Shown here piece after piece: positions 29,075 through 61,547 of a stretch of DNA of 64,000 nt. This DNA comes from Collinsella sp. An307 (lineage in GTDB: Bacteria; Actinomycetota; Coriobacteriia; Coriobacteriales; Coriobacteriaceae), in the NCBI RefSeq assembly GCF_002161805.1, contig NZ_NFIP01000002.1:186001-250000 (forward strand), read 5' to 3'. Position numbers and translations under genes: made by a program. The notes under the pieces are model-generated. The model was not told where the DNA came from and did no database searches. It saw only the letters and a program-made list of their open reading frames with translations. Each line of letters begins with the position of its first letter. Position 1 is the first letter of the stretch.

Positions 29075-29077
29075 CTG

Positions 29078-34280: not shown

Positions 34281-34694
34281 TATAAGCCGCTATTCCTCTA
34301 TCGAAGCGCGCAAGAATCTTGATGACGCTAGATTGATTAGTACTTCGTTTTGTGGGCAGCGAGAGCCTTAGGTTTATAGCGTCACACCGCGGTGTGGGCC
34401 TTTCTTTCGGTCGAGAGCCTTGGGCCGGGGTGGCGAATGGGCATATTGTTGTTCACGTACTGAAGGCCAGTCTTGGAACGTTTACTTCTGGCCCTTGGGA
34501 GGAGGGTATCATTCTACATATTTGAGCATTTTGGACCGCAGACTTTAAATGCTGCGGGTCAGTACTGAGTCGTCAACTGAGTGGAAAATGCTGGCACGTT
34601 GCGCGTAACCCATGAAGCTTCGGGTCTTATGAGATGCCTGTGCCATAATTGCATACGGCATATGCTACGAGCTTTGAGATGGGTTGGAGGGTTT
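34281..34694. other. Intergenic region with a promoter-proximal hairpin
   Basis: No gene seen in 414 bases. GACCGCAG (34534-34541) and CTGCGGGTC (34552-34560) pair around ACTTTAAATG. TTGAGC at 34522-34527, then 17 bases and TTAAAT, could be a weak promoter for the lysozyme gene, placing the hairpin over the -10 box. Confidence 0.4.
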
Positions 34695-36218: not shown

Positions 36219-36298
36219 TTTTTTGATATTGCCGCTACGGTCGCCGTTGCTCTTTTTTTGCAACGGCGACTCTCTTGTAGACGATTTGAAGGGAATAT

Positions 36299-38380: not shown

Positions 38381-38403
38381 AGGCTGTTTTCGGCTGTTAG
38401 GAT

Positions 38404-40830
38404 GTGATTTGGTTGAAGGTTAAGTTCGGCAAGGTATGTCGTGGCGGAGGCGTAATCTACATCGACGCGCAAATTACCGTATTGCCGGGTACCACAGAGA
38501 TGAGGGTTTCCGCCAAATCGGAGTGTGGGGTGGATTTGCCGGTCGAAGTCTACTATCTAAATCGGCATCAAAGCAACTCAGTGTCAAGTGGGGGTGCTAT
38601 GCGGAATTGCGTCCTCGCAACACCGATGTTGAACACGAGCAAGATTATTTTCACGTTTGAGGCCATTGGCGCGGGCAGGGATGTTATTGATTCAAAGGTA
38701 AAGCGTGTTCGACGCACCCTTACAAAATGGCTTTCTCGCCTGAACTATAAACTCAACTATGGTGAGGTCTCTCATCTGCGCGACATTGATCGTTTTACAT
38801 ATTCCGACCAGATCCATATCAAGCCAATGTACTGTTCGGTGGCCGAGAAGCGACATCAGTTAGTGGTGAAGGGAATCATCTGCACCCCTTCTGAAACTGG
38901 CAGACCACAGCTACAGCTGCTTGCATCTGACGGTAATCAAGTTGATGAATTCTCACCTTACCTGCTGCCGACACAACAAGTTGTCTATGATGGCGTTCCG
39001 AGAGCTGAAACAAGCTTTACGGCTCGAATTCCGGACGACGGAAATGCATATTGCCTTGTGGCCAAAGGCGGGGGCGATGTTCGCTCGGGTTTTATGAGCC
39101 TGTACAAGGGGCGCACGACTCCTGCCTTTACCAATCATTTTATGTTCTACTACCGTGCCGTCCGGGCGTGGATTTGGCCTAACCTGGCTCGTGACCATGC
39201 GCGCAAGTACGAGCTTGCAAATCCACGGGATTACGTTGTCGCAAATGGCCCAAAAATAAGTATCGTTGTGCCCTTGTATAACACTCCAGTTGCCTTTCTT
39301 CGCGAGATGGTTCAATCTGTTTTGGACCAACTTTATACTGACTGGGAGCTCGTTCTGGTTAATTCCACTCCGGATAATCAACAGCTGTGTCACGAGCTCG
39401 ACTCGATTTCCGACGATAGAGTTAAGATTCTCACACTATCGGAGAACTTGGGGATTTCTGAGAACACTAACGCCGGTATTCAAGCGTGCACCGGTGAATA
39501 TATCGCGTTCTTCGACCATGACGACGTGCTCGATAAACTTGTCTTGTTCCGCTATGCCAAGGAGATATCCGAACACCCTGAAATAGATGCCCTGTATTGC
39601 GACGAGGACATTCTTTCGGAAAACGGCGAATACTCTGCCCCACATTTCAAGTCAGATTTTAACTTGGATTTGCTTCGGGCTCATAACTATGTAACTCATT
39701 TGCTTACCGTGCGGGCTGATTACGTGCGTGACCTGATGCTTCGCAAAGAGTACGACGGAGCACAGGACTATGATTTTGTGTTGCGTTTGGCAGAGCGTAC
39801 GGACAGATTCGCTCATATTCCAGAGGTGCTGTATCACTGGCGCGCAAGCGCTACATCCACCGCCAGTAATTCTCAGAGCAAGCCTTATGCTCAACTTGCT
39901 GGCTTGCGCGCTCTTGACGAACATCTCTCTCGCTGCTCCCTTTCTGCTCGAGCAGCAGAATCGGATGTCATGTTTTTCTATAAGACCTCCTACCGGGTAG
40001 AGGGGAGTCCGCTTGTCAGCATAATCATTCCAAACAAAGATAGTGTTGAGGTGCTTTCGCGCTGCGTGGATTCTTTGGAGCAGATTACTTCCTACAAGTA
40101 TTTTGAAGTGGTAATCGTTGAAAACAACAGCGTGTGCACCGATACGTTTAAATTCTATGACGAAGTCCAGACAAGGTACGACAACGTGCGCGTTATCACG
40201 TGGTCTGATGAGTTTAACTACTCGAATATAAATAACTATGGTGCCGAGCACGCCCGCGGCGACTACCTTTTGCTCTTGAATAATGATACTGAGATCATTG
40301 AGCCAAACTGGCTTGATTCTATGCTGGGGTTCTGTCAGCGCAAGGATGTTGCTGTCGTAGGTGCAAAATTACTCTATCCCGACGATACTATTCAGCATGC
40401 GGGGGTTGCCATGTTAAGTTGCAAAACCCTTGCAGAAGTTGGCGGCCCGGTTCACGTGTTCTGTCATCTGGATAAAGACGATTGCGGTTATATGAATCGC
40501 GCAGCTTTTTCGCAAGATGTTTCTGTTGTTACCGGTGCGTGCCTTCTTACCAAAAGGTCCGTATTCGACCAGTTGGGTGGCCTTTCTGGGCGATACGCGG
40601 TTGCATATAACGATGTTGATTATTGTCTGAGGGCTCGAGAGGCAGGATATTTGGTAGTTTATGATGCAGACGCCGTACTCTACCATTACGAGTCGTTTAG
40701 CCGCGGTAGCGACGAAGTCGGAGAACGTGCAGTACGCTTTGTTACCGAGCAAGGTAAGCTTAGAGAAGATTGGCCTGAGTACTTCACTGGAGCAGATCCG
40801 TATTACGGAAAATATCTAAATCTTGTCTAG
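38404..40830 (+). CDS. Two-domain family 2 glycosyltransferase
   Basis: 808 residues. An N-terminal 280-residue region of unclear fold is followed by a first GT-A domain near 284 (ISIVVPLYNTPVAFLREMVQSVL, metal site FFDHDDVLDK, then YCDEDILSENGEY). A second starts near 536 (VSIIIPNKDSVEVLSRCVDSLE, metal site LLLNNDTEII). Both domains keep their acidic motifs, so both may be active, as in bifunctional enzymes of rhamnan and O-antigen synthesis. A GTG start is used. It is homologous to the 596-residue protein at 47622. The order with DUF2142 suggests one transcription unit. Confidence 0.9.
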   Translation: MIWLKVKFGKVCRGGGVIYIDAQITVLPGTTEMRVSAKSECGVDLPVEVYYLNRHQSNSVSSGGAMRNCVLATPMLNTSKIIFTFEAIGAGRDVIDSKVKRVRRTLTKWLSRLNYKLNYGEVSHLRDIDRFTYSDQIHIKPMYCSVAEKRHQLVVKGIICTPSETGRPQLQLLASDGNQVDEFSPYLLPTQQVVYDGVPRAETSFTARIPDDGNAYCLVAKGGGDVRSGFMSLYKGRTTPAFTNHFMFYYRAVRAWIWPNLARDHARKYELANPRDYVVANGPKISIVVPLYNTPVAFLREMVQSVLDQLYTDWELVLVNSTPDNQQLCHELDSISDDRVKILTLSENLGISENTNAGIQACTGEYIAFFDHDDVLDKLVLFRYAKEISEHPEIDALYCDEDILSENGEYSAPHFKSDFNLDLLRAHNYVTHLLTVRADYVRDLMLRKEYDGAQDYDFVLRLAERTDRFAHIPEVLYHWRASATSTASNSQSKPYAQLAGLRALDEHLSRCSLSARAAESDVMFFYKTSYRVEGSPLVSIIIPNKDSVEVLSRCVDSLEQITSYKYFEVVIVENNSVCTDTFKFYDEVQTRYDNVRVITWSDEFNYSNINNYGAEHARGDYLLLLNNDTEIIEPNWLDSMLGFCQRKDVAVVGAKLLYPDDTIQHAGVAMLSCKTLAEVGGPVHVFCHLDKDDCGYMNRAAFSQDVSVVTGACLLTKRSVFDQLGGLSGRYAVAYNDVDYCLRAREAGYLVVYDADAVLYHYESFSRGSDEVGERAVRFVTEQGKLREDWPEYFTGADPYYGKYLNLV

Positions 40831-40854
40831 AATTACTTGTTGTCGAGATGCTCC

Positions 40855-40890
40855 ATGGGGCGGATGCGGCCTACTCAATATCCGCCCCAT
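40855..40890. terminator. Hairpin between convergent genes (probable terminator)
   Basis: ATGGGGCGGAT (40855-40865) and ATCCGCCCCAT (40880-40890) form a perfect 11-bp stem between the glycosyltransferase and the minus-strand DUF5648 gene. The U-tract is weak on both sides. Confidence 0.6.
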
Positions 40891-40929
40891 ACGGTTTCAT
40901 CGTTCGGGCCAATGTCCGTAAGTGTGTCG

Positions 40930-41664
40930 TTAATGACAATCCTTGCAAGGGGCATCTTTGCCGGCAGCCTGCGCCTGTTGAACTGTGCCACTTAAGATGG
41001 TGTGCGAGCGCCCGAGTGCTGGGCAGTCTTTGGTCGAATGCCATTTGGTGCCGCCGGGTGTCCAGTAAACGACGCATTCTTGCGGTGTCGAAGGTTGGAA
41101 GGGGGCGCTGGCTCCTGATCCACCTTGGGATTGGCTTCCATTGCTTGGAGTGGTGGGCGGAAGTTGGACGGCGTACCAAGCCACATCTTCCTTCCTCCAG
41201 CCAATGTTTCCAAGCGTGTTGTACTCATTCAGGCTCGTGGTGTAGTGATGCGTTCCAATTACCTCATTGGGGTTAAAAAGTCTGTAGACTTTAACTGTCT
41301 TGGCTTCGTCGGAATACCAACCTATATTCTCGTATGTCCAGCCAATACGAACCAGCGCGTCTCTTTCGTTGGCGTCCATAGTGTAGTGGTGGTCCCCACT
41401 ATTGGGGTTGTACAGGCGATAGACGGGAGACTGAGATTGGGTGGGCGCAATCCAAGCGCAACCTTCCTGGACCCAGCCGATTCTTCCAAGTGTTGCGTAT
41501 TCGTTTGCATCGTGAGTGTAATGGTGTTCGCCCGTGCTGCTGTTATAAAGCCTGTAGATGGTTGTTGTTTCGGCTGCCTGCGCAGCGGTTGGAGTAATTG
41601 CCAAGGCGGCAATTAGTACGAAGAGCGAGGCAAATAGCCTCCTAGTGAGCGTGCGTACTTTCAT
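40930..41664 (-). CDS. Secreted DUF5648 repeat protein with Cys-rich C-terminus
   Basis: 244 residues. The signal peptide is MKVRTLTRRLFASLFVLIAALAITPTAAQA. Three DUF5648 units follow (IYRLYNSSTGEHHYTHDANEYATLGRIGW and so on), very like those of the lysozyme at 34695. After a Pro/Ser/Gly linker the last 50 residues read VVYWTPGGTKWHSTKDCPALG and end CKDCH, a small Cys/His domain found at the end of many secreted proteins, probably metal-binding or disulphide-bonded. There is no enzyme domain, so it may be a wall-bound adhesin or a decoy of the lysozyme. The role is inferred. Confidence 0.88.
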   Translation of the reverse strand: MKVRTLTRRLFASLFVLIAALAITPTAAQAAETTTIYRLYNSSTGEHHYTHDANEYATLGRIGWVQEGCAWIAPTQSQSPVYRLYNPNSGDHHYTMDANERDALVRIGWTYENIGWYSDEAKTVKVYRLFNPNEVIGTHHYTTSLNEYNTLGNIGWRKEDVAWYAVQLPPTTPSNGSQSQGGSGASAPFQPSTPQECVVYWTPGGTKWHSTKDCPALGRSHTILSGTVQQAQAAGKDAPCKDCH

Positions 41665-41889
41665 AGACTCTTCCTTCCCAACAAATACGCGTCGCTATCC
41701 GCATTATCAATGATGCTAGCATTCCCTTATGTGTTTAATTGGTTCAATCGGCGGGTGGTTGGTGCTGAATGAATAACAGTGTTCGTCGCGCTTAAAGTTT
41801 TGGCTCTGCAAAACCACCGCTAACATCCCTGAGTGCTCAGCGAATGGGTGCGGGCGTCCCATAGTGTGTGCCTCGTAATCGAGTAGGAG
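41665..41889. other. Intergenic region, no gene seen
   Basis: Upstream region of the minus-strand DUF5648 gene; no gene or clear promoter pair seen. Confidence 0.3.
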
Positions 41890-41973
41890 TCCCTCGCACT
41901 CACTCGCGAAGAGGGGCCGGCCAATGTTGTCGGCACCGACGGAGGTCTGGACCGTTCGGGCGACCCGCCACAG

Positions 41974-42604
41974 CTATTGCCACAGGCGGCGCGAGGGCAC
42001 GCCGCGGAGGGGCGCGAGGAATGACTTGAGACTCGAGTGCAGGGAGTTCACGAACGCCGGGCGCCGGTTCGTTTCGGGCGCGCCTGACCTGAACGCCTCG
42101 CGGCGTGCGCCCATCCTGGGAAGGAGCCTGCGGTAGGCGCCGTGCAGGCCGGTGGCGACCAGGGTCCCGACGAGACCTTGCTCTCGAGCGCGCGGCCGAC
42201 CTGCTCGTCGGTGCAACGACCGCAGCTGGAGAGTTCCGGGAGGACACCCCCGCGGTCATTGGCTCCGCAGACGGCGTAGGGATGCTCGCTGGAGACGTCC
42301 CATATGGAGACTTGGCCGTTGTGCCTCATGGCCTTGCGCGGCTTTGAGAAGGACTGCCTGCGGTTTCTACCCGCGAGTGACTCGGCGACTAGCGTGCCGT
42401 CGACCTGAACCTGAATCTTCACCTTGACGGGGCGAGCACGCCACCGGTCGAGGCTGTGAACGAGAGTCCGTAGCCGCGACAGAGCCAGCGCTGGGCGCCG
42501 GAGGCGGCTAGGCTGCGGCGCACGGGGCCCGTCGCGCCGCATATCGGGCTCCCCTTTGCGGGAGAATGATCTATGCGATGCGTATAAAAAGCTATCGGAC
42601 GCAA
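41974..42604 (-). pseudogene. IS1595/ISXO2-type transposase remnant
   Basis: Three minus-strand frames carry consecutive pieces. First is a zinc-ribbon N-terminus (GAQRWLCRGYGLSFTASTG, 42419-42604, with some Cys lost). Then a core piece, KVKIQVQVDGTLVAESLAG..., in the frame 42048-42542. Last is the C-terminus FVNSLHSSLKSFLAPLRGVPSRRLW (41974-42216). Two frameshifts and an internal deletion are required. The pattern zinc ribbon, VDxTxV, VNSLHSxLKxFLAPxRGV is that of IS1595-family transposases. No intact terminal repeats are seen. Confidence 0.72.
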
Positions 42605-42954
42605 TTCAGAACCGAGATAGTCGGGCGGATAGGAGTTTTCTGCATCGCGTCGGGAAATGCCTGTATTCTAAAATTGAAATGCTGACAGAACGGTACTAAG
42701 ATGTGACGCTCCGTCAGCGTAAAGAATAATACCGTCGAATCTTTAGTCCTCAATGGCAGTCTCCGCATGTTTCATTTCCCCTGTGGCTTGGGTCTCATAA
42801 AGAGTGCCGTTTGAGATTCCAAGACTTTCGCATTCCGTCTCGGCGCTGTCAATCGCAGTGAAGCCGTCGAACGTCACCTTTCACTCGTGCGGTGTCCTCA
42901 CGCGCTTTTCAAGACTTGGAATCTCGGTGATGAGTGCTTGTGGGTTAATACGCC
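42605..42954. other. Intergenic region with a short inverted repeat
   Basis: GAGATTCCAAG near 42810 and CTTGGAATCTC near 42916 are inverted copies. A minus-strand stretch at 42742-42880 could be read as 46 codons (VTFDGFTAIDSAE...) but has no start or known family. It looks like gene debris. Confidence 0.35.
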
Positions 42955-42988
42955 ATGTACGTAATATCCCCGTACATTTGGTTATACT
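42955..42988 (+). promoter_or_regulatory. Promoter and operator of the DUF1778/GNAT module
   Basis: Perfect inverted repeat ATGTACG-9-CGTACAT at 42955-42977 ends 5 bases before a -10 box TATACT (42983-42988). The repeat would cover the -35 position, a standard site for autorepression by a ribbon-helix-helix antitoxin. Confidence 0.6.
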
Positions 42989-43033
42989 GCTAAAATGTCG
43001 TATTGCGAGTGAGTTATGTGAGGAGGATTCCCC

Positions 43034-43306
43034 ATGGCAACGGTTTCGATGCAGAAACGAGCTCGTCTGGACATGCGTATGACGGAAGCGCAGCGCAGGG
43101 AGATTGAGCATGCAGCTGCAATCAAAGGCATGAGCCTGACCCAGTGGGCTCTCGAGAACCTGCTTTCCGCAGCTCGTCGGGATGTTTCAGAGGAGTCCAC
43201 AACCCGTCTTTCGATAGACGCCTTCAATGAGTTCAAGAACGCTCTCGATGCCGGTATGCCCGAAGAGGCGCGTCGGCTTTTGCAACGTGAGCCGGTATGG
43301 AAATGA
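43034..43306 (+). CDS. DUF1778 antitoxin (TacA-like)
   Basis: 90 residues. The N-terminal ribbon-helix-helix reads KRARLDMRMTEAQRREIEHAAAIKGMSLTQWALENLL, the DUF1778 pattern. The C-terminal tail (STTRLSIDAFNEFKNALDAGMPEEARRLL) is the toxin-binding half. Such proteins repress their own operon and block the acetyltransferase toxin. A strong GAGGAGG precedes the ATG. The toxin gene overlaps its end by 10 bases. An inverted repeat at the promoter fits autoregulation. Confidence 0.92.
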   Translation: MATVSMQKRARLDMRMTEAQRREIEHAAAIKGMSLTQWALENLLSAARRDVSEESTTRLSIDAFNEFKNALDAGMPEEARRLLQREPVWK

Positions 43307-43779
43307 GCTGCTTCTCGGCGCCTCGTAAGCTCTTGGAGTCAGACGACGTGAGAGATTTTATCTCTGGTGTTGATGTGGTGGATGCATGGGTGCATTGCCG
43401 TGCGCACCGGAGCATGAGGCAAGGGACTGCGATCGTTTACGTTGTCTACAGCGGGCGAATCATCGCGGGGCTCTACGCGTTGAGCGCGCATTCCGTATTG
43501 CGCACCGATGTCGAGGGTGGCTGGCTGAAGCGCAATACCCCAGAGCACATACCTGCGATACTTCTGGGGATGCTGGGCGTAGATGTTCATTTTCAGGGCC
43601 AGGGGCTGGGAGCCTCCCTTTTAAGGGACGCTATACTGCGTTCCGTCGAGGTGTCTGGTCAGATAGGAGCCCGAGCGCTTCTGGTCGATCCGGCAAACAG
43701 CGAGGCTTCTGCCTTTTATCGCCATTTTGGGTTTAAGGAACTGGGGGGAACAACCAGGCTCTTCCTGCCGCTCTGCTAG
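43297..43779 (+). CDS. GNAT-family acetyltransferase toxin (TacT-like)
   Basis: 160 residues with the GNAT fold: VYVVYSGRIIAGLYALSAHSVLR, the acetyl-CoA loop region LLGMLGVDVHFQGQGLGASLLRDAI (QGxGxG) and the C-terminal AFYRHFGFKEL. Paired with DUF1778 antitoxins, these enzymes acetylate aminoacyl-tRNAs and stop translation. Both a catalytic-type Tyr near the C-terminus (FYRHFGF) and the CoA loop are intact, so it may be active. The start at 43297 overlaps the antitoxin; a second Met lies two codons on. Confidence 0.92.
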   Translation: MEMSCFSAPRKLLESDDVRDFISGVDVVDAWVHCRAHRSMRQGTAIVYVVYSGRIIAGLYALSAHSVLRTDVEGGWLKRNTPEHIPAILLGMLGVDVHFQGQGLGASLLRDAILRSVEVSGQIGARALLVDPANSEASAFYRHFGFKELGGTTRLFLPLC

Positions 43780-43946
43780 CTGATTTGTCTGGCGTATCGA
43801 AGCGGTTCTTCAATTCGATGGAGAGTGGGGTGACGCGCGTGGCGCCGCCCTGTGCGCTTTGCCTAGAGACACCCCATCCGGCTCGCTCGCGCCCGCATGA
43901 CGCGCTAGAATCATCTCCAGCATAGGTGACTCAAGAAAGGGCGCTC

Positions 43947-45900
<1,954 letters not shown>

Positions 45901-51460: not shown

Positions 51461-51555
51461 TGAGTACTGCACCTAGTTAGTACCGGCGCTCTACAAGAGC
51501 GGTACCGCCCCTCTACGAAAGGCGGCACCGGCTTTCCACTATACGGATACCGAAG

Positions 51556-51786
51556 TCAGTCCCAGTATCCCTTTTCCATCTCTGCCTTGAGGCCGGCGGT
51601 GTACTCCCGCATGTTCGGCCCCTTGATGTCGAGGACCCTGGCGTGCTCCACGGCCCGGTTCAGTATCGAGTCGGCGCACAGCTCCGAGTTGATCCTCAGG
51701 TACCACTGGTCGGGCTCGAGCTGCGAGGCGAACATCGTCGAGCCGCGGCCTTCGCGCGACTCCAATATCTCGAAGAGGTCGACCGC
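51556..51786 (-). pseudogene. istB: IstB, C-terminal fragment
   Basis: The frame continues the split istB: VDLFEILESREGRGSTMFASQLEPDQWYLRINSE to GYWD and TGA. Joined to the right fragment at 53269-53807 through the duplicated CGACCGCG it restores NAVDLFEI without a frameshift, so the break is due only to the IS256-family insertion. Confidence 0.88.
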
Positions 51787-51787
51787 G
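51780..51787. repeat. Target site duplication, left copy
   Basis: CGACCGCG, repeated at 53261-53268 on the far side of the IS256-family element. Eight bases is the usual length for this family. Confidence 0.9.
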
Positions 51788-53260
51788 GATCACGTCGGAA
51801 ATGTTGGTGTAAGAGAGCGCTTTCTGTAAGCGAAACGGCCATTGCCTAGAATCTGAAATCGCGACATTACAGGTTCTAGAGAAAGGCAACGACCGCAATG
51901 AACAGCATACCAGAGGCGGCGGCCATCCCGCCCGCGCTCCCCCGCTTCGAGGACGGCTTCATCAACATGCAGGAGCTCCTGAGAGCGCTAGCCGAGTCCG
52001 TGGTCAACGAGATCATGTCCGCAGAGGCGGACCAGCTCTGCGACGCCACGGGCAACAGCAGGAACGGGTACAGGGAGCGACGCCTCGTCACGTGCGTCGG
52101 CACGCTCACGCTGCGCATCCCCAAGCTGCGCGTCGGCAGCTTCTTCCCCGACGACGTGATCGAGCGCTACCAGAGGGTCGACAGGGCGATCGTGGCGGCG
52201 GTCAGCGAGATGTACGCGACCGGCACGAGCACGAGGAAGGTGCAGAAGGTCGCCGCGGCGATGGGCGTCGAGCGCCTCTCCAAAGACCAGGTCAGCGCGA
52301 TCTGCGAGCACCTGGACGCCGAGGTGGAGGAGCTCGTCTCGCGGCCGCTGGGCGCGCTCAGGATGCCGTACCTGTGGGTGGACGCCACCTACGTCAAGTG
52401 CCGCAGGGACCGCCGCGTCGCCTCGACGGCCGTGGTCACCGCCATCGGCTGCGACGAGGACGGCTGGAGACGCGTGCTGGGCGTCTCCGTCGTGGACACC
52501 GAGAGCTACGACTCCTGGGTCGGCTTCCTCAGGAGGATCAGGGCGCGCGGCGTGACAGGGGTCCAGCTCGTCACCTCCGACGCGCACGAGGGCCTGAGGA
52601 GGGCCGTCGAGGAGGTTTTCCAGGGGTCGGCGTGGCAGCGCTGCGTCGTGCATCTCATGCGCGACTGCGCCAGGGCCGCGTCGGGGTCGAGGGGCCTCGC
52701 CAGGCGCGTGTGCAGGATAGTGGCCCCGGTCTTCCGGCTCAAGGAGGCGGGGGCGGCGAGGGCCGCCTACCACCTGGCGATCGAGATGCTCGAGGCGTGC
52801 TGCCGCGAGGCGGCCCGCATCTTGGAGGAAGCCGAGCCCGACGCCCTTGCCTACCTCGACTTCCCGCCGAGCCACTGGAAGCGCCTCAGGACCAACAACG
52901 TGCAGGAGCGCGCCAACAGGGAGATAAAGCGCAGGGCGCGCGTGGTGCAGGTGTTCCCGAGCACGGCGTCGCTGGAGCGGCTGGCGGGAGCGGTCATGTG
53001 CGACCAGGACGAGGCGTGGTCGGATGCGCGCTACTTCTCCACAAGGGCGATGTCCGAGCTCTACGAGGAGCCGAGGGTGGCGAAGACGACATCGCCGGAG
53101 AGACGAGAGGAGTGGATCGTCGTGGCGAGAAAGGCGATCGAGGCCAGCCTCGAGCTTGCGGACGAGCTGGAGGCGGCATAGGATTGGCTTGGTTGAAGAT
53201 TCAGGGTGATGGCCGCCCGCTTGCCGGATCGCACCATACACCAACTTTCTCGACACTACC
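51788..53260. mobile_element. IS256-family insertion sequence (1473 bp, apparently intact)
   Basis: The ends GATCACGTCGGAAATGTTGG (left) and the complement of CCAACTTTCTCGACACTACC (right) match at 13 of 20 positions. It is flanked by an 8-bp direct repeat CGACCGCG and holds one full-length transposase on the plus strand. It inserted in the istB of the surrounding IS21 element and is therefore the youngest insertion here. Confidence 0.92.
51898..53181 (+). CDS. IS256-family transposase, intact
   Basis: 427 residues. The N-terminus (EDGFINMQELLRALAESVVNEIMSAEADQLC) and NGYRERRLVTCVGTLTLRIPKLR are typical. The DDE domain has LWVDATYVKCRR, LVTSDAHEGLRRAVEEVF and the late Glu in NNVQERANREIKRR. 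The conserved region AWQRCVVHLMRDC is present. No stop or shift is seen, so it may be active. Length matches the family (about 400-430). Element ends and a clean 8-bp duplication surround it. Confidence 0.96.
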   Translation: MNSIPEAAAIPPALPRFEDGFINMQELLRALAESVVNEIMSAEADQLCDATGNSRNGYRERRLVTCVGTLTLRIPKLRVGSFFPDDVIERYQRVDRAIVAAVSEMYATGTSTRKVQKVAAAMGVERLSKDQVSAICEHLDAEVEELVSRPLGALRMPYLWVDATYVKCRRDRRVASTAVVTAIGCDEDGWRRVLGVSVVDTESYDSWVGFLRRIRARGVTGVQLVTSDAHEGLRRAVEEVFQGSAWQRCVVHLMRDCARAASGSRGLARRVCRIVAPVFRLKEAGAARAAYHLAIEMLEACCREAARILEEAEPDALAYLDFPPSHWKRLRTNNVQERANREIKRRARVVQVFPSTASLERLAGAVMCDQDEAWSDARYFSTRAMSELYEEPRVAKTTSPERREEWIVVARKAIEASLELADELEAA

Positions 53261-53268
53261 CGACCGCG
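53261..53268. repeat. Target site duplication, right copy
   Basis: CGACCGCG, identical to 51780-51787. Confidence 0.9.
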
Positions 53269-53807
53269 TTGAGCGGGTTCTCGATCGGCGTGGTGAAGAA
53301 GTCGTCGAGGATGAGCAGGTCCGGTTTCGAGAACCGGTCGAGCGCGTCGTAGACCCGGCCCTCTCCTCTCGCCACGTTGATCTCGCGGAACATGTCGTTG
53401 AGCCTCGCGTAGCGCACCGACATGAGGCTCCGGCATGCCGCGACGCCCAGCGCCTGCGCGATGCAGCTCTTGCCGCCCCCGCTCTCGGATATGATCACAA
53501 GGTTCTCGCGCGCCTCGACCCACGCGCAGGACGCGAGCCCTGCGATCCGGTCGCGCGTCAGGTTGCGGTCGGGCAGGTAGTAGATGTCCTCGACGCATGC
53601 GCCCTTGATCTTGAAGCGGGCCGCCCTCACCGCCTTGTCGATCTTCCTGCTGTCGCGGGCCTCGAGCTCGGCGTCGATGCACGCCCCGATCTTGTCCTCG
53701 AAGGTCATGTCGTCGAACGCCTCGTCCTCGCAGATCTCGCGCAGCTTGCGTCCGAAGGCGCCCACGCGCCATCTCGTGAACAGGGCGAAGTCCTCCTCAC
53801 TGAGCAT
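53269..53807 (-). pseudogene. istB: IstB, N-terminal fragment cut by IS256-family element
   Basis: It starts MLSEEDFALFTRWRVGAFG and continues through ARENLVIISESGGGKSCIAQALG (Walker A, with Ser where GKT/S-type loops have Gly) and LLILDDFFTTPIENPLNAV (Walker B) to the insertion point. IstB is the AAA+ helper that guides IS21 transposition. The start overlaps the istA stop by 11 bases. The remaining C-terminal part is at 51556-51786. Confidence 0.9.
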
Positions 53808-55374
53808 CTGCGTCACCCCGCCTCCTGCGGTAGTACTCGGCGCCGCGGACCCTGCCGGCATGCGCGGCGCGGTCGACGACCTGCACCGTCGGGGCCGCCG
53901 GTCGCGCGGCGGCCTCCGACCTCGCCGCCGCCATCGTGTTCTTCACGCGCGTGTAGGTCGCGGTGCCGCCCATCTCGTTGACGCGCGCGCAGGCCGCCTC
54001 GAGCTCGGCCGCCCGTCCGCGCCCGGAGAGCGACAGTATGTTGGAGCACGGGACGTAGCCCTGCGCCTCGACGGGGTGCGCATCGAGCACGGCCGCTATC
54101 AGCCTCCTGGTCTCGGGTCCGATCTCGCCGGCGCGGCGCTCGAACCACCCGCGCGTCCACAGCGACTGAGCCTCGAGGTGCTCCGGCGGCATGTGGGCGG
54201 GATCGGTCGAGTACTGGCCCCTGCGGCCGCGCAGCCTCCCGTGCTCGGCGACGGTCTCGCCGCCGTCCAGGATCGCGACGGAGGCCGCGCCGAGCCTCAC
54301 GTCGACGGTCCTGCCGACGAGACGGTGGGGCACCGAGTAGCGCATGTGGTCGCACTGGACGTGGTAGTCGGGCGACACCTTGCACCGGCGCCACTCGTAC
54401 AGCTCGAAGGGCTCTGCCGGCAGCGGATTCAGCGCGGCCCTCTCCTCGCCGAAGAAGGCGTCGTCCCGGCAGCCCTCGCGCCTGGAGAAGGGGCGGGCGT
54501 TGAGTGCGTCGACGAGGCGGCGCACCTCGGCGTTCAGCTCATCGAAGGACGTGAACCTCTCCTCGGCCAGCGGCGCGAGCACCCACGTCTCGCAAAGGTC
54601 GACCGCTTTCTCGGCGGCCGCCTTGTCCCTGGGCCTCCGGACGCGCGCCGGAACCACCGCGCAGCCGTAGTGCTCGGCCATCTCGAGGTAGGCGTCGTTG
54701 ACCTTGATCGGCTCCGACTTACGGCGCCTGTCGGTGGCGGTGGCGCAGTTGTCGGGCACGAGGATGTCGGGCACGCCGCCGGCCGCCTGGAACGCGTGCA
54801 CGTGGGCCGATATCCAGGACCGGCTGCGCATGTCGGGGAAGCACTCCGCGTGCACCCATGCCGACCAGGGGAACGACGCGACGAACAGGTACGCCGGCGA
54901 CCGTTTCCCCGTCACGGGGTCGAAGACCGAGGCGGTGAGCCCGGCCCAGTCCACGAGCATCGTCCTGCCGGGCTCGTGCGCGATGCGCGCGACGAGGTCG
55001 TGCGCGCGGGCGTGCTCGCCGACCCTCCTGCAGAAGCCCGAGTAGCCGTAGAGCCTCTTGCCGCCGGGGTTACAATCGCAGTAGCGCGCCCACTGCAGCG
55101 CGAGGGTCATCTTCGGAACCCTCGCGAGCTGGTCGCAGACGCGCGCGTAGTCGGGCTCGAGGTACTCTTCGCCGCGCTTCCCACGGCCGTCGGCGAAGAG
55201 GCCCGATACCTCGGCGTCGGTCATCGACTCCAGCCTCTCCGGGCCGATCTGCTCCTCCGCCATCTTGGCCGCGCACTTCGCGACCGTCGCCTTGCTGCAC
55301 CTCAGGGCGCGGGCGGCCTCGTTCCAGCTCACCCCCTTCAGCAGCTGGCGCATGATCTCCTTCTTAGTGGCCAT
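53797..55374 (-). CDS. istA: IS21-family transposase IstA
   Basis: 525 residues, full length. The N-terminal HTH reads MRQLLKGVSWNEAARALRCSKATVAKCAAKM. The DDE core has TMLVDWAGLTASVFD, ILVPDNCATATDRR and the Glu in KAAAEKAVDLCETWVL. The C-terminal beta and Arg-rich parts are also present. The start MATKKEI at 55374 has a very good AAGGAGG. It is intact, but its IstB partner is disrupted. It differs strongly from the degenerate IstA at 31080, so these are two separate IS21 groups. Confidence 0.95.
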   Translation of the reverse strand: MATKKEIMRQLLKGVSWNEAARALRCSKATVAKCAAKMAEEQIGPERLESMTDAEVSGLFADGRGKRGEEYLEPDYARVCDQLARVPKMTLALQWARYCDCNPGGKRLYGYSGFCRRVGEHARAHDLVARIAHEPGRTMLVDWAGLTASVFDPVTGKRSPAYLFVASFPWSAWVHAECFPDMRSRSWISAHVHAFQAAGGVPDILVPDNCATATDRRRKSEPIKVNDAYLEMAEHYGCAVVPARVRRPRDKAAAEKAVDLCETWVLAPLAEERFTSFDELNAEVRRLVDALNARPFSRREGCRDDAFFGEERAALNPLPAEPFELYEWRRCKVSPDYHVQCDHMRYSVPHRLVGRTVDVRLGAASVAILDGGETVAEHGRLRGRRGQYSTDPAHMPPEHLEAQSLWTRGWFERRAGEIGPETRRLIAAVLDAHPVEAQGYVPCSNILSLSGRGRAAELEAACARVNEMGGTATYTRVKNTMAAARSEAAARPAAPTVQVVDRAAHAGRVRGAEYYRRRRGDADAQ

Positions 55375-55516
55375 ACGGGCCTCCTTCCAACGGGCGAGGG
55401 CGCCCGGATGGCGCCCTCCTCGCTGAAAGGTTATCGGGTTCGCCGGCCGGTACCGCATATGCGGAACGGCGGTACCGCTCTTGTAGAGCGCCGGTACTAA
55501 CTAGGTGCAGTACTCA

Positions 55517-56248
55517 ACAGAGGCGATGGACAGCGGAACGGTGGGGAAATCGACGATACCGTCGATGGAATAGAGCATAAGCGAGAAGAAGCTCCACTTG
55601 GTCTCACCGGCAACGCGTTCGACGTTGACGTAGGGGAGCCACTTGGTCTTGAAGCCCACCCAGCCGAAGATGCCTTTGGAGAAGCGGTTGTACTCTCGCA
55701 TGGAGAGAATGGCATCCACCATAGGGCGTTTCATGAGGCGGAAATCACGCGCGCCGTCGGCGATATCTGCCTTGGAGATATGCCTGATGAGCTTATAGAA
55801 CATCCGGGCGAAAAAACGAGCGGATGGGTGGCTCTCCATCGCGGTTGACGCGTCGTGCAGCGACGTTGTCATAATCCTCGGTGAGCGGGATGTTATACAT
55901 CTGGGGGAGAAGACTTGGCGAGTCTTGCATGTCGGCATCCATGACGGCGACGTAATCGCCGCGCGCGTGTTCGAGCCCTGCGAGGATGCCCGCCTCTTTA
56001 CCGAAGTTCCGCGAGAACGTGATCCAGCGGATTGTCAGAGGTGCGTATACTTCGGCGGTTTGGGGTGCGGAGGCGCTTTTCATCAGGGCGAGCGTTTCGT
56101 CGCGAGAGCCGTCGTCCACCAGAATGGTTTCGATATGAGCGTCGTGCTCGGCTTGCAAGGCGCAGGCGACATCGGTAAGCGCGGAAAGGAAGAACGGCAG
56201 GCTCTCCTGCTCGTTATAGCAGGGAACAACAACGGAGATAAGGCTCAT
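55517..56248 (-). pseudogene. GtrB-like glycosyltransferase, N-terminal part, frameshifted
   Basis: It begins MSLISVVVPCYNEQESLPFFLSAL and includes the ILVDDGSRDET loop, SRNFGKEAGILAGLEHARGD and the metal site VMDADMQDSP. This is a GT2 enzyme of the GtrB/DPM type with C-terminal membrane helices. A run of six A (55811-55816; six T in the coding strand) shifts the frame: five T would join RSF to FARMFYKLIRH. The second frame then runs to VPLSIASV and meets the IS21 end. The tail lies at 51283-51460. It is inactive now; it probably charged undecaprenyl phosphate with a sugar. Confidence 0.88.
55811..55816. other. Homopolymer run causing the frameshift
   Basis: Six A (six T in the gene) in the GtrB-like gene; one base fewer restores the frame. 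Slippage or a sequencing error are the two simple explanations. Confidence 0.7.
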
Positions 56249-56385
56249 AGTGTTATGAATCCCCCCGGCGAAACGACATTCAATAGTAGAAGTCTAGCGC
56301 TTTAGGTTTTGGTGATGGTCACCGCCATAATTCTCTGAGCCTGCTATCCTTTACATGCTCATTACATTTCTATTTGGGGGAACGC

Positions 56386-58488
56386 TTGGACGCACAACAG
56401 CTGTATTCGATTATTCCGTTGCTGGGCATAGTTCTCATCGCGGCTTCCTGCTGGGGCAGGACTCTCGTCAAGAAGGACGAGGCGCTGCGCGAGCGGCTTG
56501 TCGCCTTCAGCGGCATCATCCCCTTTGTTGCTCTCCTGGGGTTTACCGGTATCTGGTATGGACTCGACAAGATGGCATGCGATCAGATTTTCCTTTTTGG
56601 GATGACCGGTGTCTTTACGCTGCTGGGCGCGCTCTCGGTGTTTCGCGATGTGCTGATTAAGCGGTCTTCCGGTGTTTCGGGCGTTCTTCTAGCGGAGGCG
56701 CGCGACGCGCTGCTTCTTGTCGTTGCCAGTGTTTACTCGTTCTTCGTTCTCGACATTTTGTGGAACGAGACGCTTTTCTCGCTCCAGATCATCTTCGCCC
56801 TTATCGCTATCGTCTCCCTGTTTGCAATTTATCTCTTCCTGTATTTTCTCGGCCAGCGGACGGGAATTGCCGTATCCCTCGGTGTGGTCGTTTTCACGCT
56901 GGTCGGCGTCGCCCAAAACTTCGTGGTCCTCTTTAAAAGCTCGCCTATCTTGCCGAGTGACATCTACGCCTTTGGAACGGCTGCCGCGGTGAACTCGGGC
57001 TATGATCTTACGCTAACGAAAGAGGCGCTTTGGCTGCTGGTCGCTTGTGCTGTAATCCTCTTCTTGCTTGAGTTCATGGTGCCCAGCATAGGGGAGGACA
57101 AAAAGAAGATCGGTATCTTCGTTGCAATAAACACGGCGTGCGCCCTTGCGGTTGGAGGAGCCGCCCTTGCCTGCTTCAACACGGTTGACCTTGCCGATAC
57201 GTTTGCAACCGACAAAGCCGCCTGGCAGCCGCTCCCTGCGTACAAGACCCAGAGCTTCATGCCGTCGTTTCTTACCCTAGCGCAGCAGATGCGCGTAGAG
57301 GCGCCCGACGGCTACACGCAAGGGGAAGCGGAGCAGTTGGAGTCCACATACGCGGCGACGTACGATTCCGTAGCCGATCCGAATATCACCGCCAGTGCGA
57401 CTGACCAGTTTGCCGAAGTGAAGCCGACGGTTATTGCCATCATGAACGAGTCGTTCTCTGACCTCTCCTTTATGGATGGGCTGGGGGTTGGTTACCAAGG
57501 GCCCACGTATATGAACACGATTGCGGATGCCGCCCTCACGGGGAGCCTTTCCGTCTCGGTTCACGGCGGCGGTACGGCAAACTCCGAGTTCGAGTTCCTC
57601 ACGGGTAACAGTATGGCGCATCTTGGCGTCGCGTTTTACCCCTACAGCACCTTCAACCTCTCTGGTGTGAGCAGCCTACCCAAACAGTTCTCAGAGCTCG
57701 GGTACAAAACGACAGCTATCCATCCCAACCTCGCCAGCAACTGGAGCCGCGACAAGGCGTACGCGGAACTTGGCTTCGACGAGTTCATCGACATTAGCGG
57801 GTTCGAGGGCGCTGAGACGTACCATGCCGGCGTGACCGACGCGGCGACCTACGATAAGGTCCTGGAGCTCCTCCGCGAGGACGATTCTCCGCAGTTCATC
57901 TTCGATCTCACTATGCAGAACCACGGCGGTTACACGGTGGGCAATGTCGCTCAGAATCTGCCGTGGTTTGATTTTCCCGCTGGCGATGATTCTCTTGATG
58001 CGCAGATGAACGAGTATCTTGCCTGCATCGAGCAGTCCGACTGGGCGCTTGCGGACTTCATCGAGGGGTTGCGCATCCTCGACCGTCCTGTAGTGGTTGT
58101 GTTCTTCGGTGACCACCAGCCGGGCATCAGTTCCAATTTCAACGATGCTATGTATCCCGGCGAGGACGAGGTAACCCATGCGGAGCGCATCTATACCACG
58201 CAATACTTCATCTGGGCAAACTACGATCTTGCGGGCAACGATCAGATCTCTGCGCATGACGACCTAAGCACGAGCACGCTCGGCGCCAAGCTGATGGAGA
58301 TCATCGGCGCTCCTATGACGAAGTACCAGAAAGCGTTGCTCGCGGCACGCGCCGAGGTTCCTGCCATCAACTCGGTTGGCTATCGCGGGGCAGATGGGCT
58401 CTGGTACGACCTTACGGCAGAGGACCGCTCAAAGACCGTCGATGACCTCGAGTGGCTTCAGTACCTCAATTTGGGGAGCAAGGTGTAG
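56386..58488 (+). CDS. LTA synthase-like phosphoglycerol transferase (membrane sulfatase family)
   Basis: About 700 residues. Five or more N-terminal membrane helices (YSIIPLLGIVLIAASCWG... to about residue 275) precede an extracellular sulfatase-fold domain. The metal/nucleophile sites are visible: IAIMNESFSDL, the Thr nucleophile in HGGGTANSEFEFLTG, LTMQNHGGY and VVFFGDHQPGI. Such enzymes move glycerol-phosphate from phosphatidylglycerol to a wall polymer or glycan. TTG at 56386 follows GGGGG; a TTG 12 bases earlier is possible. It is at the end of the surface-polysaccharide region, suggesting phosphoglycerol decoration of that glycan. Confidence 0.92.
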   Translation: MDAQQLYSIIPLLGIVLIAASCWGRTLVKKDEALRERLVAFSGIIPFVALLGFTGIWYGLDKMACDQIFLFGMTGVFTLLGALSVFRDVLIKRSSGVSGVLLAEARDALLLVVASVYSFFVLDILWNETLFSLQIIFALIAIVSLFAIYLFLYFLGQRTGIAVSLGVVVFTLVGVAQNFVVLFKSSPILPSDIYAFGTAAAVNSGYDLTLTKEALWLLVACAVILFLLEFMVPSIGEDKKKIGIFVAINTACALAVGGAALACFNTVDLADTFATDKAAWQPLPAYKTQSFMPSFLTLAQQMRVEAPDGYTQGEAEQLESTYAATYDSVADPNITASATDQFAEVKPTVIAIMNESFSDLSFMDGLGVGYQGPTYMNTIADAALTGSLSVSVHGGGTANSEFEFLTGNSMAHLGVAFYPYSTFNLSGVSSLPKQFSELGYKTTAIHPNLASNWSRDKAYAELGFDEFIDISGFEGAETYHAGVTDAATYDKVLELLREDDSPQFIFDLTMQNHGGYTVGNVAQNLPWFDFPAGDDSLDAQMNEYLACIEQSDWALADFIEGLRILDRPVVVVFFGDHQPGISSNFNDAMYPGEDEVTHAERIYTTQYFIWANYDLAGNDQISAHDDLSTSTLGAKLMEIIGAPMTKYQKALLAARAEVPAINSVGYRGADGLWYDLTAEDRSKTVDDLEWLQYLNLGSKV

Positions 58489-58702
58489 CAGAACGGAGTG
58501 CTACATCTAGGGCTGTTCATGCTCGAAAAAAACGGATTAATTAATTGTGAAGAGATACGCTTGTATGGGGATTATCTCGGGCAAGATGCGATATTAGGCG
58601 ACGATTTCTTATGGAATTACCCATTACCAAGGACTGATAGATACGACGAAATAATCGTCAAATATGCTATCCTGAAGAGGCGCTCGAAAAGAAAGGGGTG
58701 CT
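58489..58702. other. Spacer before the ATPase/RloB module
   Basis: 214 AT-rich bases; no gene with a ribosome site. It probably holds the promoter of the downstream two-gene operon (AT-rich TATGCTATCCT near 58664). Confidence 0.35.
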
Positions 58703-60109
58703 GTGATCATGTTGTTGAAGTTCTCTCTAAAGTCTTTTCGTTCATTTAAGGATGCCGTCACGCTCGATCTGGTCTCTTCTTCCAAGATTAAAGCTCTGCC
58801 AGGGCATGTGTCGCGTTTTGGTCGTATGAAGGTCCTGAAGAATGCCGCCATCTATGGTGCTAATGCAGCCGGTAAATCGAACTTGCATGCTGCCCTGTCG
58901 CTCATTCAATTTACGCTCGTTAATGGGAAGTTGCCTCTAAACGTTACTTCGTCGTTCTGTAAATTGAAATCGGACGGGGCTGCATCTGAAAGCTCCTTTG
59001 ACCTGCTGTTTGAAGTTGATGGCAAGTTCTTCGACTATGGATTTACCGCGCGTCTGGCGGAGCGAAACGTTGTCTCAGAATGGCTGTATGCGTTGGAGCT
59101 CGGCTCTGGCAGTTCTTGGAAAACAACGAGCCTATACAGCCGGGAAGGAACGGCAGCGCCCCAGCTTGGATCCGATGTGGCGGTGAATGATGTTGATAGG
59201 AGCCGCTTCGAGCTTTATGCCTCTGACTTCGCCCCATCAACGGAGGGCTTGTTTTTGGCAGAGCTCAATAGAGGCAAGCGCTTTGCAACAGATTCGGCTT
59301 TCCATCAGTTTCATATTGCATATAACTATCTTTGTTCCCGCGTGCGTATCATCGGGGCGGGTGATGTTGTTCCGTTTGATATCTCGTATTTGAGTAGGGA
59401 AAAACTCGATAACATCTCCTCAATAATGGCCGGGTTCGACACTGGCATCGATAAGGTTGCTAGGATCCCTGTCGATGCTTCGAAGCTCAACGAGCTTGTT
59501 CCCCAGAAGGTTGTAGATGAGGTGAAGGAACGTCTTAACGACATTGCGGGGCGCAAAGTTGAGGCGGCGGGAATGATTATCAGAACTGGTGCGTCTTTTG
59601 TGGTGATTGAGTATCGCAAGAATACCGATCCTGACGTCTCTAAGATCTGCACCAAGCATGCCGGCTCGTTTTACGATTTCGATTTCGGTGAGGAATCCGA
59701 GGGTACAAAGCGTCTTTTTGATTTTCTTGATCTGCTGTTCGCAGGGGATCAGGATGCCGTGTTCTTTGTTGATGAAATTGACCGCAGCCTACATCCCATG
59801 CTCACTAAGCATCTGATCGAGCTTGTGAATGCTGTCCATGCAGATGATAAGGTCCAGCTGATTTTTACTACCCATGAGGATTCCCTTATGGACCATAGAG
59901 TTCTTAGAAATGATGAGATATGGTTCATCGACCGCAGCGTCGAAGGTGGGTCACGTCTATACCCGCTCGATCAGTTTAGAGAGCGCGGAGATAAGAAAGT
60001 TGCCAAGGCGTATTGGGACGGGAGGTATGGAGGAGTCCCTGTTCTTTCGTCGTTGGAAAACCTTTCCGAGATTCAGAGTGGCGAGGAGGTTGAGAATGCC
60101 TCCGCTTAA
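58703..60109 (+). CDS. AAA-family ATP-binding protein (AAA_15, RloA/OLD-like)
   Basis: 468 residues. It opens LLKFSLKSFRSFKDAVTLDLV, the SMC/OLD-type strand pair. Walker A is AIYGANAAGKSNLHAAL near residue 50, and late Walker B and D-loop are DAVFFVDEIDRSLHPMLT near 353, followed by QLIFTTHEDSLMD. This architecture is that of AAA_15 ATPases used in anti-phage pairs. The next gene is RloB-family and overlaps it by 14 bases, so the two are translationally coupled. GTG at 58703 follows AAAGGGG; an ATG lies two codons on. GC is lower than the flanking core genes, consistent with transfer. Defence role is inferred. Confidence 0.9.
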   Translation: MIMLLKFSLKSFRSFKDAVTLDLVSSSKIKALPGHVSRFGRMKVLKNAAIYGANAAGKSNLHAALSLIQFTLVNGKLPLNVTSSFCKLKSDGAASESSFDLLFEVDGKFFDYGFTARLAERNVVSEWLYALELGSGSSWKTTSLYSREGTAAPQLGSDVAVNDVDRSRFELYASDFAPSTEGLFLAELNRGKRFATDSAFHQFHIAYNYLCSRVRIIGAGDVVPFDISYLSREKLDNISSIMAGFDTGIDKVARIPVDASKLNELVPQKVVDEVKERLNDIAGRKVEAAGMIIRTGASFVVIEYRKNTDPDVSKICTKHAGSFYDFDFGEESEGTKRLFDFLDLLFAGDQDAVFFVDEIDRSLHPMLTKHLIELVNAVHADDKVQLIFTTHEDSLMDHRVLRNDEIWFIDRSVEGGSRLYPLDQFRERGDKKVAKAYWDGRYGGVPVLSSLENLSEIQSGEEVENASA

Positions 60110-60827
60110 CTGCCTTGATACGTGGGGACGTGAGACAGAGAGCGGCGTTCCCGTAGAGCCCAAGCGAAGAATCTTCCTGCTTTTCGAGGGTGAAAACTCT
60201 GAGTTCGATTACTTTGATGCGCTGATCAATCTTCTTAACCGCAGGAAGCTGCCAAAATATCTTGCTGTCATACCCACCAAGCGCGAGGGCAAGGATAAGG
60301 GGGCGTCAAATCCAAAGAGGCTTCTTGCGTTTGCGCAAGATATTCGTAATGCCGCAAGAGGAGATGCTGAAGCTGAGGAACGCGTGTGCGGCGAGGTGAG
60401 CTATGAGGAGGGCGATGAGATAGTCGCCATCTTCGATGCTGACATCTATAAGAATTCGCCTGATGCTTATGTCGCTCTATTAGATGACTTCTCTAAAGAA
60501 GACGTTGCGACATATGTGACGTATCCGAGCTTCGAGTTGTTCCTGTTCCTTCACATTGAAAACGGCCTAGATGACTGGGTGCTCCCCCACCGGACGGAGA
60601 TCATCGAGAATCAGAAAATGCCGGGCAGTAAGCGTCGATTTATCGAGCGGTTATTTTCTGATGCTGTCCAATGCAACCCGAAGAAGGAAGGTGCTTGTGC
60701 GCGATTTGCGAACGGGTATGCAAGGGCGTGTCACGAGGAGGGCAGAATCAATCAAGAGACACGTTCGGCGATTCGTGTTCTCACCTCGAACATCGGCCTT
60801 CTGATCGGTCGCTTGGAATCAAGTTAA
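60096..60827 (+). CDS. RloB-family protein (predicted Toprim-like nuclease)
   Basis: 243 residues. It has the RloB layout: FLLFEGENSEFDYFDALINLL near residue 27, an acidic Glu site, then VAIFDADIY near residue 112 (DxD) and YPSFELFLFLHIENG. A late SNIGLLIGRLE closes it. RloB proteins pair with AAA ATPases in defence loci (RloA/RloB and AbiL-type gene pairs); the Glu and DxD could form a metal site like that of Toprim nucleases. Start 60096 has GAGGAGG. It ends about 120 bases before tRNA-Arg. Confidence 0.88.
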   Translation: MPPLNCLDTWGRETESGVPVEPKRRIFLLFEGENSEFDYFDALINLLNRRKLPKYLAVIPTKREGKDKGASNPKRLLAFAQDIRNAARGDAEAEERVCGEVSYEEGDEIVAIFDADIYKNSPDAYVALLDDFSKEDVATYVTYPSFELFLFLHIENGLDDWVLPHRTEIIENQKMPGSKRRFIERLFSDAVQCNPKKEGACARFANGYARACHEEGRINQETRSAIRVLTSNIGLLIGRLESS

Positions 60828-60930
60828 GGAGCGGTAGTGGGATGAATAAAGATTAGCATTGAGTTCTGGAGTGCGAAAGCTGCGCGGCGTGTGGTTTACG
60901 TTTACAGGAGTTTCGCAATCCTGCTTCATC

Positions 60931-60936
60931 TATAAT
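60931..60936 (+). promoter_or_regulatory. -10 box of tRNA-Arg
   Basis: TATAAT, 13 bases before the tRNA. No good -35 is seen 17 bases upstream, so the promoter may be of extended or weak type. Confidence 0.5.
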
Positions 60937-60948
60937 CGGTTGAGCTAA

Positions 60949-61025
60949 GCGCCCTTAGCTCAGTTGGATAGAGCAGGAGACTTCTAATCTCAAGGTCGTG
61001 GGTTCGAATCCCCCAGGGCGCACCA
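60949..61025 (+). tRNA. tRNA-Arg (TCT)
   Basis: Cloverleaf with acceptor GCGCCCT paired to AGGGCGC, anticodon loop CTTCTAA (TCT), T-loop GGTTCGAATCC and encoded CCA. Confidence 0.95.
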
Positions 61026-61283
61026 TTGTATTTGAGCGCCCGCCGCAACCGGTGGGCGCTGCTCGTTTGCAGCGGGGGAGCGCGGCGCATGGGGCTAGAA
61101 CGCGGCGCGTCAAGTCGAGCGCGACGGGTGTCTCGTTGAGCCTTGCGGCTACCGCTCACCGGCAAACGGACGCGCAAGTAGCATTTCTCGCAACAAAATC
61201 GGATGTATGGGGTAAACTAGACCCGTCGTTGTAACGTGTCCTGTCGCGCGGCGCGCGGCTGGCATGGTCAAAAGGAGTCAAAC

Positions 61284-61547
61284 ATGGTTTCTGAGAAGGT
61301 TACGCTCGTTAACCCGCAGGGTCTTCACATGCGTCCCGCCGGCCTCTTCGCCTCCACCATGGGCAAGTTCGCCTGCGACGTGACCGTTGTCACCCCCGAG
61401 AAGGAGGTCAACGGCAAGAGCCCCATGGCCCTTATGGCTGCTGGCATCCCCTGCGGCACCGAGGTTGAGATCCGCTGCGACGGCGCTGACGAGGCCGACG
61501 CTCTCACCGCTGCTGTCGAGCTCATCAAGAGCGGTCTCGGCGAGTAG
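61284..61547 (+). CDS. ptsH: HPr phosphocarrier protein
   Basis: 87 residues. The phosphorylated His is in NPQGLHMRPAGLFAS and the regulatory Ser in NGKSPMALMAAGI (Ser46), so HPr kinase control is possible. It carries phosphate from EI to sugar-specific EIIA domains. AAAGGAG precedes the ATG; the upstream frame is a shadow. It is followed by ptsI after 95 bases, where it normally sits. Confidence 0.97.
   Translation: MVSEKVTLVNPQGLHMRPAGLFASTMGKFACDVTVVTPEKEVNGKSPMALMAAGIPCGTEVEIRCDGADEADALTAAVELIKSGLGE

What the first reader, a model, noticed from the sequence alone, without database searches (positions are those of the whole stretch)
58703..60827. AAA ATPase plus RloB two-gene module beside tRNA-Arg, probable anti-phage system
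The sequence shows overlapping genes for an AAA_15 ATPase and an RloB-family protein with Glu and DxD acidic sites, lower in GC than the flanking core genes and ending 120 bases before a tRNA. ATPase+RloB pairs of this order are known from abortive-infection-type defence; this version and its target are not described here. It lies between a conserved wall gene and the pts genes, a likely insertion hotspot.
Basis: partly seen in the sequence, partly recalled or inferred. Interest (0 to 1): 0.65.

Follow-up and report, generated by a model that had tools for sequence, protein, structure and literature searches.

The report
AbiL-type two-gene phage-defence cassette
A gut actinobacterium carries, next to a tRNA gene, a two-gene cassette that looks like the known AbiL phage-defence/toxin-antitoxin system (an ATP-driven sensor plus a nuclease-like toxin); sister species lack it at this spot, so it is a genuine but ordinary example of a known kind.

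Summary
Two intact overlapping genes lie at 58703-60827: an ABC/AAA_21-AAA_15 ATPase (58709/58703-60109) and an RloB-family protein (true start most likely ATG 60096, not 59874). They are lower in GC than their flanks, and RloB ends 121 bp before tRNA-Arg(TCT). PADLOC assigns them to AbiLi (E 2.9e-77) and AbiLii (E 3.6e-11), so this is an AbiL-type system: a known kind, not an undescribed one. The ATPase-RloB pairing recurs in 60 of 71 relatives found across many phyla. RloB keeps the acidic E...DxD set, which aligns with OLD-type Toprim nucleases by profile; the structural match to OLD is only modest. The pair is accessory: two congeners have about 185 bp between the same sulfatase gene and the tRNA, and a third has an acyltransferase-like gene there. 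A second, 41%-identical pair lies elsewhere in the genome. tRNA adjacency is not a family feature and no integrase is seen, so the tRNA is probably incidental. Most likely mechanism (inferred from PARIS and tested AbiL/RloB homologues): the ATPase restrains the Toprim effector and senses infection; the released effector stops growth by nucleic-acid cleavage. Trigger and target are unknown.

The parts
56374..58488 (+). left flank: LtaS-like sulfatase-fold membrane protein, present at the same place in sister species
   Evidence: PF00884 9.3e-41; 81/71/69% identical copies beside the same tRNA and HPr gene in G007/G005/G006
58489..60923 (.). accessory stretch with no counterpart in sister species (about 2.4 kb in place of about 185 bp)
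   Evidence: nucleotide homology to G005/G006 stops at the sulfatase stop codon and resumes at the tRNA; to G007 it resumes at about 60924
58709..60109 (+). AbiLi-type ABC/AAA ATPase, 466 aa (alternative GTG start 58703)
   Evidence: PADLOC AbiLi 2.9e-77; AAA_21 2.1e-28; model pLDDT 89.7
58856..58882 (+). Walker A GANAAGKSN (residues 50-58)
   Evidence: G50, N52, G55, K56 invariant in 41 homologues
59693..59707 (+). ABC signature-like ESEGT (residues 329-333)
   Evidence: E329, S330, G332, T333 invariant
59759..59776 (+). Walker B VFFVDE (residues 351-356)
   Evidence: D355 invariant, E356 at least 90%
60080..60089 (+). ribosome-binding-site-like GGCGAGGAGG in front of RloB ATG 60096
   Evidence: sequence
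60096..60827 (+). AbiLii/RloB-family Toprim-like effector, 243 aa, overlapping the ATPase gene by 14 bp
   Evidence: PF13707 8e-16; PADLOC AbiLii 3.6e-11; model pLDDT 88.4
60186..60203 (+). EG..SE motif (E31, E36) of RloB
   Evidence: E31 77%, E36 97% conserved; aligned to the Toprim EG motif of OLD proteins
60435..60443 (+). DxD (D114-A-D116) of RloB
   Evidence: 100% and 90% conserved; aligned to the OLD Toprim DxD
60534..60536 (+). E147 of the PSFE motif of RloB
   Evidence: 100% conserved in 71 distinct homologues
60949..61025 (+). tRNA-Arg (TCT), right edge of the variable site
   Evidence: ARAGORN; alignment to G005 identical over window 60949-61028

Best explanation
The pair is a horizontally acquired AbiL-type (ATPase + RloB) defence/toxin-antitoxin cassette. 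The first gene encodes an ABC-type ATPase with intact Walker A, signature and Walker B motifs. The second, overlapping and probably translationally coupled, encodes an RloB protein whose E/DxD/E residues make a Toprim-like metal-dependent nuclease site. The likely mechanism is that the ATPase oligomer holds the Toprim effector inactive and senses an infection cue, whereupon the freed or activated effector cleaves nucleic acid, perhaps tRNA as AriB of PARIS does, and stops growth before phage release. Shown here: gene structure, family assignment, conserved pairing, intact catalytic motifs, accessory status at a variable site. Inferred: complex formation, sensing, nuclease substrate, protection.
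For: PADLOC AbiLi 2.9e-77 and AbiLii 3.6e-11; Pfam AAA_21/AAA_15 and RloB over cut-off. In 71 named genome loci fetched with the ATPase profile, 60 carry RloB directly downstream. Catalytic residues kept. hhalign of RloB with OLD-like Toprim domains aligns EG and DxD: score 30-33, P 3e-4 to 5e-4, against a maximum of 17 in 100 gap-filtered column shuffles and 12 reversed. VIA-align ranks OLD nuclease Toprim domains first to fourth, Z 8.4 to 6.6. The ATPase profile matches PtuA, retron ATPases, OLD and AriA in the PDB. Sister genomes have an empty or differently filled site. RloB is in only 14 of 65 family genomes. Literature: a C. algidicarnis AAA/TOPRIM_OLD (RloB-like cluster D44) pair was validated as a toxin with its neutraliser (PMC10440598); F. 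nucleatum AbiLii is toxic in E. coli (PMC3985639); AriA-AriB release and tRNA cleavage (PMC12409363).
Against: No activity was tested. RloB is only distantly Toprim-like: Foldseek gave no hit with E under 0.001, there is no solved relative by sequence, and the OLD Z-scores stand only modestly above unrelated Rossmann folds. L. lactis AbiLii itself was not toxic in E. coli, and F. nucleatum AbiLi did not neutralise AbiLii (PMC3985639), so the simple antitoxin role is not uniform. Genes next to 60 homologous pairs show no strong enrichment in other defence genes (no background rate was measured).
Confidence: 0.68

Rival explanations
1. The same biochemistry but not defence: a chromosomal toxin-antitoxin or addiction cassette that keeps itself in the genome without protecting against phage.
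For: Compact stand-alone two-gene cassette; scattered presence (14 of 65); neighbours are mostly ordinary genes; the AAA-neutralised A. guerrae pair, which has a different toxin, gave no protection in a coliphage screen (PMC10440598).
Against: Best model match is AbiL, defined by phage abortive infection; the ATPase belongs with defence ATPases PtuA, OLD, AriA and retron ATPases.
Confidence: 0.17
2. RloB cuts DNA rather than tRNA or other RNA, as OLD and Gabija Toprim nucleases do, so the system destroys phage or host DNA rather than blocking translation. (A variant of the best explanation, not exclusive of it.)
For: The nearest solved folds are OLD DNA nucleases, and the profile match is to OLD-like Toprim.
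Against: The closest two-gene architecture with a known substrate, PARIS, cleaves tRNA (PMC12409363). Toprim fold alone does not fix the substrate.
Confidence: 0.4
3. Inactive relic of an inserted element.
For: Low GC; the region has several transposases, and the nearby GT2 gene is broken.
Against: Both frames open, starts and ribosome-binding sites present, all conserved motif residues kept.
Confidence: 0.08
4. An integrase-borne element that uses the tRNA-Arg as its attachment site.
For: The insert ends next to a tRNA and sister species lack it.
Against: The insert is 5' of the tRNA, no duplicated tRNA end was found in the window, no integrase-sized ORF lies in the 2.4 kb besides the pair, and other unrelated single genes occupy the same place in relatives.
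Confidence: 0.05

Closest known systems
AbiL (AbiLi/AbiLii), abortive infection system of Lactococcus lactis
   Same: Two-gene ATPase-then-RloB order; PADLOC models AbiLi 2.9e-77 and AbiLii 3.6e-11; overlapping genes here.
   Different: Chromosomal, in an actinobacterium; sequence divergent, and the AbiLii model is covered only partly (positions 25-85 of 170 in the best stretch). The lactococcal proteins themselves were not aligned here.
AAA(D29)-TOPRIM_OLD(D44, RloB-like) toxin-antitoxin pair of Clostridium algidicarnis (NetFlax, PMC10440598)
   Same: AAA ATPase paired with an RloB-homologous toxin; the ATPase neutralises toxicity in E. coli.
   Different: Sequence not compared here; phage protection was not shown for it.
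PARIS (AriA/AriB)
   Same: Separate ABC ATPase and Toprim effector genes; weak ATPase profile similarity to AriA (PADLOC AriA 8.3e-29).
   Different: Effector matches PF13707 RloB and AbiLii; no AriB model appeared among PADLOC hits of the effector. Trigger and tRNA target not shown.
OLD family nucleases / Gabija GajA
   Same: ABC ATPase plus Toprim nuclease combination; profile and fold similarity of RloB to the OLD Toprim domain.
   Different: Here the two domains are separate genes, and there is no GajB helicase.

Membership tests
AbiL (AbiLi + AbiLii) | ATPase matching the AbiLi model | tested here: met
   PADLOC PDLC02335 E 2.9e-77, best of 44 families
AbiL (AbiLi + AbiLii) | adjacent downstream RloB-type protein matching the AbiLii model | tested here: met
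   PADLOC PDLC02337 E 3.6e-11; PF13707 8e-16; 14-bp gene overlap
AbiL (AbiLi + AbiLii) | abortive infection of phage needing both genes | not testable with these tools
   needs phage challenge
RloB (PF13707) | Pfam gathering score | tested here: met
   59.2 bits against 31.5
Toprim nuclease superfamily | Glu of the EG motif and the DxD pair in register with known Toprim domains | tested here: met
   hhalign with OLD-like Toprim aligns EG and DxD, P 3e-4 to 5e-4, far above shuffles
Toprim nuclease superfamily | Toprim fold | tested here: inconclusive
   OLD Toprim domains rank first to fourth, Z 8.4 to 6.6, but unrelated Rossmann folds reach 6.5 and Foldseek has no E under 0.01
PARIS (AriA/AriB) | AriA-type ATPase | tested here: inconclusive
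   AriA model hit 8.3e-29, but AbiLi is far better
PARIS (AriA/AriB) | AriB-type effector | tested here: not met
   the effector's only PADLOC hit is AbiLii; it is RloB in Pfam

The most novel reading that the evidence does not exclude
The coriobacterial/Firmicutes AbiL branch (window, its genomic paralogue, L033, L034, L035) has an RloB with PxFELFL in place of the common SNPCFExWL motif and may cut a substrate, or answer a trigger, not seen in PARIS, OLD or Gabija.
Probability: 0.12. Interest if true: 0.5.

Novelty: new member of a known kind. Interest (0 to 1): 0.25.

Why it matters
It adds AbiL-type cassettes, two of them in one genome, to gut Coriobacteriaceae, and gives a clean empty-site comparison between sister species. 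RloB effectors still have no close solved relative in the PDB copy searched, and I found no reported substrate in the papers I read. A small intact pair with a defined empty site is a convenient subject for finding the substrate, but the kind itself is known.

Tried and rejected
Integrase/tRNA attachment: rejected (insert 5' of the tRNA, no integrase-like gene, no second tRNA-Arg copy in the window). Association of the family with tRNA genes: rejected, 2 of 58 loci hold any tRNA. Membership in PARIS: rejected for the effector. Defence islands: genes next to 60 homologous pairs gave only scattered PADLOC hits, not used as support. Solved homologue of RloB by sequence: none. Foldseek for the RloB model: nothing significant. 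Promoter/terminator scan: no promoter-like site in 58400-61300, where shuffles give about 2; uninformative. The first shuffle control of hhalign gave one freak score (133), which I put down to gap-rich columns without proving it; repeated on dense columns the maximum was 17. RloB protein search in plasmids: no match. Viral contigs: one distant ATPase relative.

Full report
What is there. The window (G000:C10:186001-250000) holds two co-directional overlapping genes at 58703-60827. The ATPase ORF opens at GTG 58703; ATG 58709 fits the conserved MLxxF start of its homologues. It ends at 60109. RloB most likely starts at ATG 60096, preceded by GGCGAGGAGG, so the genes overlap by 14 bp and RloB is 243 aa; the 59874 start in the ORF list is mechanical. 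RloB stops at 60827 and tRNA-Arg(TCT) begins at 60949. GC is 0.49 and 0.51 for the pair against 0.57-0.64 for the flanking genes, and third-position GC 0.53-0.56 against 0.72-0.88.

Family. Pfam gives AAA_21 and AAA_15 for the first protein and RloB for the second, all over cut-off. PADLOC gives AbiLi (E 2.9e-77, best of 44 families) and AbiLii (E 3.6e-11, the only hit). A scan of 84,980 species genomes with a three-sequence ATPase profile brought 71 loci. In 60 of them RloB lies directly downstream, and at least three of the 11 others lie at or close to a contig end. The phyla include Actinomycetota, Bacillota, Bacteroidota, Cyanobacteriota, Pseudomonadota and others, by record titles. In a FastTree tree of 41 ATPases the window sequence groups with L033 (uncultured Coriobacteriaceae, about 50% identical), with its own genomic paralogue, and with two Bacillota sequences (L034, L035), support about 0.99 or more. 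RloB pairs of other Coriobacteriaceae (L105, L109, L112-L114) fall elsewhere, so the family entered these bacteria more than once (inference from the tree).

Catalytic sites. In the ATPase the Walker A GxNxxGK, signature ESxGT and Walker B Asp are invariant or nearly so in 41 homologues. In RloB, D114 and E147 are conserved in all 71 distinct homologues, E36 in 97%, D116 in 90%, E31 in 77%, and all are present here. Profile-profile comparison of 40 RloB proteins with 14 OLD-like Toprim domains from the same bacterial family aligns the EG and DxD motifs (P 3.4e-4; 5.4e-4 on dense columns; best of 100 shuffles scores 17 against 30). The AlphaFold2 model of RloB (pLDDT 88) has no significant Foldseek match. 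In the VIA second look OLD nuclease Toprim domains take the first four places (Z 8.4 to 6.6), though unrelated Rossmann folds reach 6.5. I take Toprim kinship as likely, in line with the HHpred statement in PMC10440598. The ATPase model and profile resemble PtuA, retron ATPases, OLD, AriA and Rad50/SMC heads.

The site. The order sulfatase - tRNA-Arg - ptsH is kept in congeners. G005 and G006 have about 185 bp between sulfatase stop and tRNA; G007, the nearest relative (81% identical sulfatase), has about 1.1 kb with an acyltransferase-like gene on the other strand (my reading of its sequence); G025 of another genus has a glycosyltransferase-like gene there. Nucleotide homology ends at the sulfatase stop (58488) and resumes at the tRNA (60949; 60924 with G007). 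So about 2.4 kb is specific to this genome, in a place with changing contents. RloB occurs in 14 of 65 genomes of the bacterial family. A second AbiL-type pair, 41% (ATPase) and 36-39% (RloB) identical, lies at C1:205665-207735 and also matches AbiLii. Only 2 of 58 homologous loci contain any tRNA, so the tRNA neighbourhood is not a family feature.

How it probably works. From published work on relatives: a C. algidicarnis AAA/TOPRIM_OLD pair of the RloB-like cluster acts as neutraliser and toxin in E. coli (PMC10440598). F. nucleatum AbiLii is toxic in E. coli, although its AbiLi did not neutralise it and L. lactis AbiLii was not toxic there (PMC3985639). In PARIS the AriA ATPase hexamer holds AriB, a Toprim tRNase, until a phage protein binds (PMC12409363). 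By analogy, the ATPase here senses infection and controls RloB, which cleaves nucleic acid and stops growth. Which nucleic acid, and which trigger, is not known.

Verdict. The cassette is a new member of the known AbiL kind, and the finding is of modest interest.

Noticed in passing
51461-55516: IS21-family element with exact 49-bp inverted ends, istA 53797-55458 (-); its istB is interrupted by another transposase ORF (51898-53181, +), a nested insertion.
   Followed up: partly
55501-56248: A GT2 glycosyltransferase gene (-) abuts the IS21 end and also carries a frameshift (ORFs 55793-56248 and 55501-55938); probably a pseudogene.
   Followed up: partly
L029:6666-8730 (G000:C1:205665-207735): Second AbiL-type ATPase+RloB pair in the same genome, about 40% identical, downstream of an istB-like ORF.
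   Followed up: partly
25000-44000: Low-GC stretches with GT2 and GT4 glycosyltransferases, a DUF2142 membrane protein, a GH25 lysozyme-like protein with DUF5648 and a Mu-type transposase: a surface-polysaccharide region of mixed origin.
   Followed up: partly
L036:6001-7425: A coriobacterial ATPase, 41% identical, has no detectable RloB downstream; G024 (L031/L063) likewise: possible orphan ATPases or other partners.
   Followed up: no
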